Assembly: GCF_008329525.1 (NCBI RefSeq)
Contig: NZ_NPKQ01000003.1
Span: 62,001 to 126,000, forward strand
Source of the DNA: Tardiphaga sp. P9-11
Lineage (GTDB): Bacteria > Pseudomonadota > Alphaproteobacteria > Rhizobiales > Xanthobacteraceae
Direction: 5' to 3'
DNA: 64,000 nucleotides
The translations under genes were made by a program, and so were the position numbers. Position 1 is the stretch's first letter. Every line of letters begins with the position of its first letter. This document shows positions 33,619-35,555 of this stretch, piece after piece. The notes below the pieces were generated by a model that was not told where the DNA came from, did no database searches, and was given only the letters and a program-made list of their open reading frames with translations.

Positions 33619-33828
33619 CTAGTCCGCGTAGAACTTCCGCGGCATCGGCGCAGCCGCGCTGATCCCGGCGCTGGAACAATCGTCTTCGGATTCGCCGTCC
33701 ATCAATCCGGCGCCGCAATGCCGGCAGGTTCGCGCAGAGATTGCCTGAGCTTTGCCGGCTATGCGCGCCTGTTGATAGGACCTGAGATCGACGACGTTCC
33801 GTCCCGATGTTTCTGTTTTGTCAACCAT
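33619..33828 (-). CDS. Small conserved Rhizobiales-type protein with CxxC
   Basis: A 69-residue protein starting MVDKTETSGRNVVDLRS, with a central TCRHCGAGLMDGESEDDC carrying three cysteines that could bind a metal. It is similar in style to small hypothetical proteins common in Bradyrhizobium genomes. It lies downstream on the same strand of the candidate structured RNA (34010-34434), which may be part of its leader or an independent transcript. Confidence 0.65.
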   Translation of the reverse strand: MVDKTETSGRNVVDLRSYQQARIAGKAQAISARTCRHCGAGLMDGESEDDCSSAGISAAAPMPRKFYAD

Positions 33829-34009
33829 TGCTGTCCTCATCGCTACTGACAGCGTTATGACAGCAACCATTAGCGCAACCGTTCAGCGGAACGCTCGAAT
33901 TTTACCGGATAAATTGTGGCGGGAATCGCGCCAAGCCTATGATCATTGAGCTTTTCGAACACGCATCGTGAATGCATTTTGATAGTTGGAAAAAGATTCA
34001 GACAGTCAG

Positions 34010-34434
34010 GTTTGCAGCCGCGCCGATATGATCCCGCGAGCGCATGCTCGGGATTGTCGAAGCGGTGTCCCCTCCTGAAACATGAGGGGTGGCAGCGCGC
34101 CTGACGACGCGAAATAGTGGTAATTTTCGCGATCCGCTCCGCCGGAACGCCGGCAAGCTGCAACCGCGCAACGCCATCAGGCGCGCCACCGCGGCTTTTC
34201 TGTCCCTGGGGCCGTGCTTCCGGGTACTGGGCACTGGCATCGCACCCGTCATCCAGCAGGCTTTCGCCCACCTTCGCCCGCACCCGTCCAGCCTCAAGCG
34301 GCAGAGCCCCGTAGTGGGCCCGGACGGCTACCCAAGGCCTCCCGAGTGCGCAGGGTACGTCACCCCACACCCGCAGGCGCCGCATCCTGTCCCACTTCAA
34401 GACGCCTCATGAAGCGCCCCTCGTGAACGGGATG
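34010..34434 (-). ncRNA. Candidate structured non-coding RNA of about 0.4 kb
   Basis: A 746-bp stretch without a convincing gene (33829-34574) holds this block. On the minus strand a promoter-like TTGACA (34467-34462), a 16-bp gap and TATTCT (34445-34440) precede it. Helices: long-range pairing of 34089-34104 with 34177-34189 (14 bp, one bulge); a 7-bp stem at 34108-34131; GCCGG/CCGGC at 34141-34154; CCCCTC/GAGGGG at 34069-34089; a GGC-GAAA-GCC tetraloop at 34259-34268; and a hairpin at 34031-34054. No RNase P GAGGAAAGUCC core, SRP, tmRNA tag or riboswitch consensus was found. The 3' end is uncertain; a T5 run lies at 33994-33990. Confidence 0.6.
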
Positions 34435-34439
34435 ATCGG

Positions 34440-34467
34440 AGAATAATCCTTATGGGTACATTGTCAA
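34440..34467 (-). promoter_or_regulatory. Sigma-70-like promoter for the candidate RNA
   Basis: Read on the minus strand: perfect -35 TTGACA at 34467-34462, 16-bp spacer, -10 TATTCT at 34445-34440. The expected start is near 34433, at the edge of the structured block. No open frame of quality follows it. Confidence 0.55.
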
Positions 34468-34503: not shown

Positions 34504-34552
34504 CATTTGTCATTCCGGGGCGCGCCCTTGCGCGAGCCCGGCACGACAAATG
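34504..34552. repeat. Palindromic intergenic repeat downstream of corA
   Basis: Outer arms CATTTGTC (34504-34511) and GACAAATG (34545-34552) are perfectly complementary, and inside CCGGG/CCCGG pairs again. It shares the TCATTCCGGGGCG core with 10186-10198. Placed 22 bp past the corA stop, it probably ends or protects the corA transcript. Confidence 0.6.
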
Positions 34553-34574: not shown

Positions 34575-35555
34575 CTACAGCCACTTCTTCCACTTGAAGA
34601 ACATGTAAGGCAGTGCCGCGGCTAACAGCATCATGACGAGCGCCACAGGATAGCCGAAGTCCCACTGCAGTTCCGGCATCAGCTTGAAATTCATGCCGTA
34701 AACCGAGGCGATCAGGGTCGGCGGCATCAGCACGACGGCCATGACCGAGAACAGCTTGATGATGTTGTTCTGTTCGAGATTGACGACGCCGAGCATGGCA
34801 TCGAGCGTGAAGGTGATCTTGTTCGACAGATAGGACGCGTGATCGGTCAGGGAGACCACGTCGCGCTGCATGGTCTTGAGCTGCGCGCGCATGTCCTTCG
34901 ACCACTTCACGCCTTCCGCCTCGGCGGTGATGAAGGTGACGACGCGGCCGATCGAGACCAGGCTTTCACGCACTTTCGAGGTCAGATCTCCCTTGCGGCC
35001 GATGGTGATGAGGATTTCTGAGTAACGCTTGGCATGGCCGGTCCGCAGCGACTCATCCGGTTCGAAGATGTCGTGGCTGACCTGATCGACATCGGCGCCG
35101 ACGCGTTCGAGAATGTCGGCGCAGCGATCGATCACTGCATCGAGCAGTTCGAGCAGGGTGGTTTCGCCATTGGCGCCGGCGGGCGCATTGCGACCAAGCT
35201 TCAGTTCGACTGACGCGAACGGGCGCGGTGTGTCGTAGCGCACCGTCACCAGCCGCTGCCGGGTGAGAATGAAGGTTACCGCCGTGATCCGCGGCGACTC
35301 CGTATCTGAGCCGCACATCAAGCTGGCGGTCATGTAACGGGCGCCATTCTCGATATAGAGCCGGCTGGAGATTTCGATCTCCTGCATGTCTTCACGGGTC
35401 GGAATCTCGATTCCCGCCAGCTTCTCCACCGCCTTGTCCTCGGCCGGCGACGGCTTCACCATGTCGATCCACACCGCATTGTCCGGCAACGCCTCAAGAT
35501 CGGTCGGCTCGGATTTTCTCAAGGCGTGATCGGCAGGGGTGAAGACAGCGAGCAT
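34575..35555 (-). CDS. corA: CorA-family magnesium/cobalt transporter
   Basis: Pentameric inner-membrane channel for Mg2+ (also Co2+/Ni2+), 326 residues. A large N-terminal cytosolic domain is followed by two C-terminal membrane helices flanking the YGMNF selectivity motif, with a basic end (MFFKWKKWL). Length and topology are canonical. It is monocistronic; its upstream region (35556-36001) has a TGACAA dyad but no magnesium-sensing leader that I can recognise. Confidence 0.95.
   Translation of the reverse strand: MLAVFTPADHALRKSEPTDLEALPDNAVWIDMVKPSPAEDKAVEKLAGIEIPTREDMQEIEISSRLYIENGARYMTASLMCGSDTESPRITAVTFILTRQRLVTVRYDTPRPFASVELKLGRNAPAGANGETTLLELLDAVIDRCADILERVGADVDQVSHDIFEPDESLRTGHAKRYSEILITIGRKGDLTSKVRESLVSIGRVVTFITAEAEGVKWSKDMRAQLKTMQRDVVSLTDHASYLSNKITFTLDAMLGVVNLEQNNIIKLFSVMAVVLMPPTLIASVYGMNFKLMPELQWDFGYPVALVMMLLAAALPYMFFKWKKWL

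What the first reader, a model, noticed from the sequence alone, without database searches (positions are those of the whole stretch)
33990..34467. Candidate long structured RNA with its own promoter and no match to known families
A 746-bp gap holds about 425 bases that fold into several helices, including a long-range 14-bp pairing (34089-34104 with 34177-34189) enclosing a 7-bp stem (34108-34131) and a GCCGG hairpin (34141-34154), plus a GGC-GAAA-GCC tetraloop. Directly upstream on the minus strand is TTGACA-N16-TATTCT. None of the cores I know (RNase P GAGGAAAGUCC, SRP, tmRNA tag, common riboswitches) is present. The length would suit a stable structural RNA or a long leader of the 69-residue CxxC protein at 33619-33828.
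Basis: partly seen in the sequence, partly recalled or inferred. Interest (0 to 1): 0.78.

Follow-up and report, generated by a model that had tools for sequence, protein, structure and literature searches.

The report
Large structured RNA, many copies per genome
This stretch appears to encode a previously unclassified, roughly 430-base folded RNA that this soil bacterium and its relatives carry in many scattered copies, most with their own start signal, which suggests a large and still unstudied family of RNA genes.

Summary
Window 34467-33990 (minus strand) has a sigma-70-type promoter and a ~424-nt RNA body with no Rfam match. It is one of 10 'type A' copies in its genome; 23 matches to a related 'type B' (~510 nt, same promoter and five-domain order, different core) lie in the same genome. 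Compensatory changes support the fold: on 51 diverse A copies, 124 pairs, 90.9% of cells paired, 516 double-change cells against 188±13 in shuffles. 100 of 104 A and 59 of 59 B copies have a promoter match (16 of 400 control windows). Of 18 sites shared between genomes, all same-direction, 8 have A in one species and B in another, and copies within some genomes are nearly identical: rRNA-like concerted evolution. Neighbouring genes vary, which argues against a leader of the CxxC gene. The family is found in Tardiphaga, Rhodopseudomonas, Afipia, Pseudolabrys and Bradyrhizobium and, by six supported genomes, in other families of the order. Best reading: a multi-locus, trans-acting structural RNA; main rival: a selfish repeat. 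Expression and function are untested.

The parts
34462..34467 (-). -35 box TTGACA
   Evidence: sequence; scan; 100 of 104 A and 59 of 59 B copies have a -35/-10 pair with at least 9 of 12 matches
34440..34445 (-). -10 box TATTCT, 16 nt from the -35
   Evidence: conserved position in the aligned copies
34010..34433 (-). Type A RNA body, about 424 nt; start inferred from the -10, end from the limit of conservation
   Evidence: nhmmer and alignment of copies; consensus fold
34383..34434 (-). Domain I: closing helix with inner hairpin (GAGGGGCG...GGCGTC)
   Evidence: helices 1 and 3, 93.4% and 98.6% of cells paired, 7 of 11 pairs of helix 1 with double changes
34200..34377 (-). Domain II: multi-branched core with CACTACGGGG hairpin; model R1 hit 34200-34340
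   Evidence: helices 6-12; R1 match 132 bits, the window is one of the sequences R1 was built from
34091..34190 (-). Domain III: about 20-bp helix GGTGGCGCGCC...GGCGCGCTGCC with inner arm and variable GCCGG hairpin
   Evidence: helices 13-15; helix 13 97.2% of cells paired, 8 of 19 pairs with double changes
34071..34089 (-). Hairpin IV CCCCTC...GAGGGG
   Evidence: helix 16, 81.5% of cells paired; 4 of 6 pairs canonical in the window copy
34031..34054 (-). Hairpin V ATCCCGAGCATGCGCTCGCGGGAT
   Evidence: fold of the window sequence; consensus helix 17 in other copies, 81.1% of cells paired; misaligned for the window row, 1 of 7 pairs
33990..34009 (-). Degenerate copy of the family's 3' tail (CTGTTTGACAGTTGAATC in others), here CTGACTGTCTGAATCTTTTT, ending in a T-run
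   Evidence: alignment; the intact tail pattern occurs 6 times in the genome, each just beyond the 3' end of a copy by coordinates

Best explanation
The feature is one gene of a new multi-locus family of large structured RNAs. SHOWN by sequence: the window copy and nearly all aligned Tardiphaga copies carry a sigma-70-type promoter match and a five-domain RNA whose pairing is kept through compensatory changes; the genome has 10 type A copies and 23 type B matches; copies at shared sites keep their direction between species while the RNA at the site is homogenised or exchanged (A for B). INFERRED: each locus makes an independent stable transcript; the copies act together in trans, so that the summed dose matters, as for rRNA genes; gene conversion, apparently with the promoter, keeps the set alike. 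INFERRED, weaker: the RNA works as an abundant RNA-protein or RNA-only scaffold, or binds and titrates a common protein, rather than regulating its neighbours. Of the stated confidence about 0.3 would go to that specific mechanism.
For: Covariation on A (fold derived from the same 51 sequences): 124 pairs, 63 with double changes vs 48.7 shuffled, 516 double cells vs 188±13 shuffled and 92-202 slid. A structure derived from 68 copies keeps 90.5% of cells paired in 31 others, slid 45-47%, with 352 double-compensatory, 359 one-sided and 371 broken cells (at least 14 of the 31 are from Tardiphaga genomes). B: 151 pairs, 91.1% paired, 266 double cells vs 92 shuffled. Own-genome copies are 87-98% paired (8 A and 18 B examined). 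Promoter: 100/104 A, 59/59 B, 16/400 random windows. No frame is open in more than 15/104 A or 10/59 B copies. Census: 10 A, 23 B. Sites: 18 shared between genomes, 8 of them A in one and B in another, flanks of the eight 73-94% identical. Within-genome identity up to 99-100% between sites in G011 and G013. Homologues outside the family.
Against: No transcript has been seen; no RNA-seq was available. In the Bradyrhizobium-like genus g40 only 1 of 11 sampled copies keeps TTGACA. High copy number and varied neighbours are also what a selfish repeat would show. Ten of 59 B and two of 99 A copies have under 80% canonical pairs. Of 12 orthologous site-genome pairs with both flanks on one contig, 3 are empty. 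The shuffle control does not remove relatedness of the copies. No intrinsic terminator was found at the 3' end.
Confidence: 0.62

Rival explanations
1. A selfish or mobile repeat that carries a promoter and whose RNA fold serves its own spread (the 'mobile/repeat sequence candidate' class of PMC11109978).
For: About 33 copies in the genome, 51 R2 matches in G151; varied neighbours on either strand; near-identical copies at different sites in G013 and G011; promoter mostly lost in g40; site L278 empty in G013 and G011 without a clear remnant.
Against: Where sites are shared, direction is kept (18 sites; no inverted two-flank match, 4 one-flank), but only occupied loci were compared there. The L269 site, empty in G016, keeps the 3' tail, so it is a loss. 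The 64 diverse A copies are 373-499 nt, without room for a transposase gene; copies split by an insertion would have been missed. The window copy and one g40 copy match no plasmid or phage record; another g40 copy matches 1 of 72,556 plasmid records. Most copies keep pairing and, in Tardiphaga, promoter.
Confidence: 0.27
2. A long leader or riboswitch of the downstream gene (CxxC ORF 33619-33828 in this window).
For: The CxxC ORF is on the same strand about 160 nt beyond the tail.
Against: Neighbours differ between copies; the downstream gene is on the other strand in 34 of 79 loci; the CxxC ORF has no Pfam family.
Confidence: 0.03
3. A chromosomal recombination or architecture element in which the DNA, not the RNA, matters; copies lie at rearrangement breakpoints.
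For: For several copies one flank matches one site and the other flank another site in relatives; many draft contigs end within copies.
Against: DNA-level function does not explain compensatory changes in many helices or the kept promoter. Breakpoints at long repeats are expected anyway.
Confidence: 0.05

Closest known systems
Large 'ornate' bacterial RNAs: OLE, ROOL, GOLLD (PMC12286853, search listing with the start of the abstract only)
   Same: Hundreds of nucleotides, elaborate conserved fold; function unknown (recalled)
   Different: No Rfam match to them; tens of dispersed copies in a genome with two types that replace one another at shared sites
rRNA operons (as genomic behaviour; recalled)
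   Same: Multi-locus, own promoter, concerted evolution at conserved sites, rearrangements at copies
   Different: Shorter; not rRNA by Rfam scan; more loci; two types
Mobile/repeat sequence candidates in GC-rich intergenic regions (PMC11109978, three passages read)
   Same: Multiple copies per genome, no consistent orientation to neighbours
   Different: Shared sites across species, promoter and pairing kept in nearly all Tardiphaga copies; the window copy's neighbours are CorA and an SDR enzyme, not mobile genes
Br-REP1/Br-REP2 of Bradyrhizobium (PMC5082802: abstract, section 12 and passages read)
   Same: Repeats in intergenic regions of related bacteria
   Different: Those are short palindromes; a Br-REP2-like one lies beside this RNA (about 34504-34545) and is not part of it. 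That paper's multi-copy sRNAs BjsR5/6/7/10 have 2-4 copies; I could not compare their sequences

Membership tests
Any of the 4,227 Rfam 15 families (that RNase P, SRP, tmRNA, 6S, riboswitches and group I/II introns are among them is recalled) | Covariance-model score above the family's gathering cut-off | tested here: not met
   12 further loci holding A, B or related copies at E<=1 gave six hits, none overlapping an element by coordinates
Ornate large RNAs (OLE, ROOL, GOLLD) | Match to their Rfam models (recalled to be in Rfam) | tested here: not met
Cis-acting leader or riboswitch | Consistent, same-strand downstream gene family | tested here: not met
   45 of 79 downstream genes co-directional, varied families
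Mobile/repeat sequence candidate | Multiple copies per genome with inconsistent orientation to neighbours | tested here: met
Mobile/repeat sequence candidate | Association with transposase, integrase, nuclease or helicase genes | tested here: inconclusive
   Window neighbours are CorA, an SDR enzyme and an unnamed ORF; neighbours of the other loci were clustered but not named
MITE | Terminal inverted repeats and target-site duplication | tested here: inconclusive
   Conserved ends are a promoter and a CTGTTTGACA tail, not inverted copies by eye; one empty site is a deletion with a remnant, another is unclear; not scanned in all copies
Protein-coding gene | Open frame conserved through the copies | tested here: not met
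   at most 15 of 104 A and 10 of 59 B copies open in any one frame
Transcribed ncRNA gene | Transcript from the promoter | not testable with these tools
   No RNA data; only promoter conservation

The most novel reading that the evidence does not exclude
Hyphomicrobiales carry an rRNA-like multigene family of a new large RNA: tens of chromosomal loci, two interchangeable types swapped by gene conversion, together producing an abundant structural RNA or ribonucleoprotein that has not been named.
Probability: 0.35. Interest if true: 0.92.

Novelty: new variant of a known kind. Interest (0 to 1): 0.8.

Why it matters
If transcribed, this would be an unusually amplified structured-RNA gene family: about 33 loci (10 A by R1; 23 B by R2) in a probable Tardiphaga genome and 51 R2 matches in a relative. 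It offers a direct test of why a genome keeps tens of copies of a non-ribosomal RNA, and a natural system for gene conversion in bacteria. It is also a warning for annotation: one matching plasmid stretch lies within a predicted 'hypothetical protein'.

Tried and rejected
Leader hypothesis: disfavoured on varied neighbours. Coding: not supported. Known RNA: no match (the hits at E<=10 or E<=1 lay outside the elements). boxA/rRNA link for the 3' tail: considered from memory; the tail pattern occurs 6 times in the genome, each beside a copy by coordinates; I did not look up the rRNA operons.

Model R1 (domain II) found only the own genome among 199 genomes drawn from the order, under stricter filters, which looked like family restriction. 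A search with a distant copy from G039 then matched 12 of 397 order genomes, 9 of them outside the family. nhmmer matches to the A model or the G039 copy support six of the nine, G039, G263, G291, G331, G455 and G499 (the last with pieces at contig ends); G350 and G388 are weak, and G431 rests on the short BLAST match alone. So one search missed the wider class. The pattern had a wrong spacing and is void. Alignment A3 joined A and B domain I poorly and was not used for a model. In alignment A1 the window row was offset by 6 nt and lacks its -35 box. Five of 104 A copies were dropped as too gapped before the fold; pairs starting before column 75 were dropped. R1, R2, A1 and A2 hold chosen diverse copies, not all.

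Literature: no description found in nine searches of open papers. Looked into: PMC5082802 (abstract, section 12, passages), PMC4842269, PMC11109978 and PMC8225791 (passages), PMC8632094 (term search, nothing found). In one search one of five sequence strings was mistyped, so four count. Subscription papers and supplements were not searched. I recall that the type B-like sequence is common in Bradyrhizobium genomes; that comes from no call.

Full report
WHAT IS THERE. Window 34467-33990, minus strand, between corA (34575-35555, CorA) and a 69-residue ORF with no Pfam match (33619-33828), holds TTGACA-N16-TATTCT and about 424 nt of GC-rich sequence. Rfam finds nothing on the element at E<=10, and nothing at gathering score in the whole window.

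IT IS A FAMILY. A BLAST of the gap against the window's own genome found ten long relatives, the window copy included, plus shorter matches, and against 41 relatives found matches in 21. An exact 28-nt core pattern occurs in 90 stretches of named records; the 80 listed are mostly Tardiphaga and Pseudolabrys, with Rhodopseudomonas, Afipia, Bradyrhizobium sp. NFR13, unnamed Hyphomicrobiales, and single MAGs labelled Rhizobium and Devosia. G001, G009 and G004, of the window's genus, share contig lengths with T. robiniae Vaf-07, T. robiniae LMG 26467 and NFR13, so the window genus is most likely Tardiphaga (inference). By BLAST, type A occurs in 82 of 198 family genomes and 24 of 41 genera.

STRUCTURE. 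RNAalifold on 99 of 104 full-length A copies gives one fold (pair table). On a plain MAFFT alignment of 51 diverse copies, with the fold computed from that alignment, 124 pairs are 90.9% canonical; 63 pairs and 516 cells carry changes on both sides, against 48.7 and 188 in shuffles and 31-51 and 92-202 when partners are slid. Shuffles do not remove relatedness, and a fold taken from the same sequences favours itself over slid versions, so the hold-out matters: a fold from 68 copies is 90.5% canonical in 31 others, slid 45-47%; at least 14 of those 31 are from Tardiphaga genomes, so it is a partial hold-out. The layout is domain I (closed helix with inner hairpin), domain II (multibranch core), domain III (about 20-bp helix with an inner arm), hairpins IV and V, and a short tail. 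Modules inside domain II change together on both arms in different copies (by eye).

TYPE B. Partial hits led to a second type with the same promoter, domain I, hairpins IV/V and tail but another domain II/III sequence. Its fold, from 59 copies, has the same five-domain order, 91.1% paired, 266 double-change cells vs 92 shuffled. A model of its 5' domain (R2) matches 23 places in the own genome, 31 in G016, 51 in G151, and at least two in every one of the 20 genomes given, from six genera (E<=0.01, 5' domain only, so truncated copies count). Type A by model R1: 10 in the own genome. By BLAST, B occurs in 73 of 198 family genomes and 13 of 41 genera, including the large-genome genus g40, which I take to be Bradyrhizobium (inference). 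A named Bradyrhizobium plasmid carries one partial match, within an annotated hypothetical protein, which R2 also finds.

PROMOTER AND TAIL. A -35/-10 pair with at least 9 of 12 matches is present in 100 of 104 A and 59 of 59 B copies, against 16 of 400 random windows, while sequence further upstream is mostly unrelated. Against this, only 1 of 11 sampled g40 copies keeps TTGACA-N17-TATATC, so the promoter is eroded or different there. No intrinsic terminator was found at the 3' end; the window copy's tail ends in a T-run.

GENOMIC BEHAVIOUR. Neighbours of 80 loci are diverse by a crude gene call; the downstream gene is co-directional in 45 of 79. Comparing both flanks of 120 fetched, hence occupied, loci gives 18 sites shared by at least two genomes; at 8 of them one species has A and another B. 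Flanks of those eight are 73-94% identical; in the closest pair (L276/L120) homology stops 111/67 nt before the element and resumes in its last 25/20 nt, in others it stops up to about 1 kb away. That search looked for the same direction; a second one found no two-flank match in the opposite direction and 4 one-flank matches. Copies at different sites of one genome can be 99-100% identical (G013, G011), as under gene conversion; in other genomes copies differ (own genome mean 0.66). Single-flank matches suggest rearrangements at copies.

OCCUPANCY. Flanks of eight own-genome sites were sought in six relatives. In 12 site-genome pairs both flanks lie on one contig: 9 are occupied and 3 empty (with copy positions); other pairs had flanks on different contigs, apart, or missing. 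The L269 site is empty in G016 but keeps the 3' tail, hence a deletion; the L278 site is empty in G013 and G011 without clear remnant, so gain there is not excluded.

RANGE. A short hit in G039, of another family, proved to be a five-domain homologue by eye and partly by profile. With it, 12 of 397 order genomes match, 9 outside the family, of which six are supported by profile matches. The core model R1 had missed these. Range outside the order was not tested. Plasmids: no match to the window copy or one g40 copy, one record for another g40 copy. Phage records: none. Viral contigs: no match to the exact pattern.

READING. Kept structure and promoter in tens of copies, with shared sites and exchange of types, fit a multi-locus RNA gene acting in trans better than a leader, a coding gene or a dead repeat. 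A selfish repeat whose RNA fold serves itself remains the serious rival. Transcription, abundance and partner are unknown; the scaffold or titration role is inference by analogy.

NOVELTY. Not in Rfam, and not found in the open literature searched (calls listed under Tried and rejected). As a kind, large structured bacterial RNAs are known; the copy number, the exchange of two types at shared sites and the rRNA-like evolution are what is new.

Noticed in passing
window 34504-34545: A REP-like palindrome (TCATTCCGGGGCGCGCCCTTGCGCGAGCCCGG) resembling Br-REP2 of PMC5082802; similar ones flank other copies, e.g. the L269 and L278 sites.
   Followed up: partly
L068, L281 (one-flank matches): Copies whose two flanks match two different sites in relatives, a sign of inversions or translocations through recombination between copies.
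   Followed up: partly
G001 and G009 contig ends: Many draft contigs end inside type B copies, so these RNAs seem to fragment Tardiphaga assemblies.
   Followed up: no
upstream of the promoter, own-genome copies: AAACATTTTTTCCTAT or close forms precede the -35 box in the five type B copies shown and several type A copies, and the spacer often holds TCCCTATANGGAT-like sequence; possible UP element or operator.
   Followed up: no
L040 / G039:C15: The distant homologue lies directly upstream of an ORF that looks DinB-like (recalled resemblance, not searched).
   Followed up: no
g40 copies L332-L341: Upstream of several copies, CAACCCGTCGGGCAAATCAC-like units recur, a further REP-type repeat.
   Followed up: no
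L062:3964-4064: An Rfam Rhizobiales-2 RNA (75.6 bits, gathering 40) lies in the same own-genome stretch as a type B copy, about 2.4 kb away.
   Followed up: no
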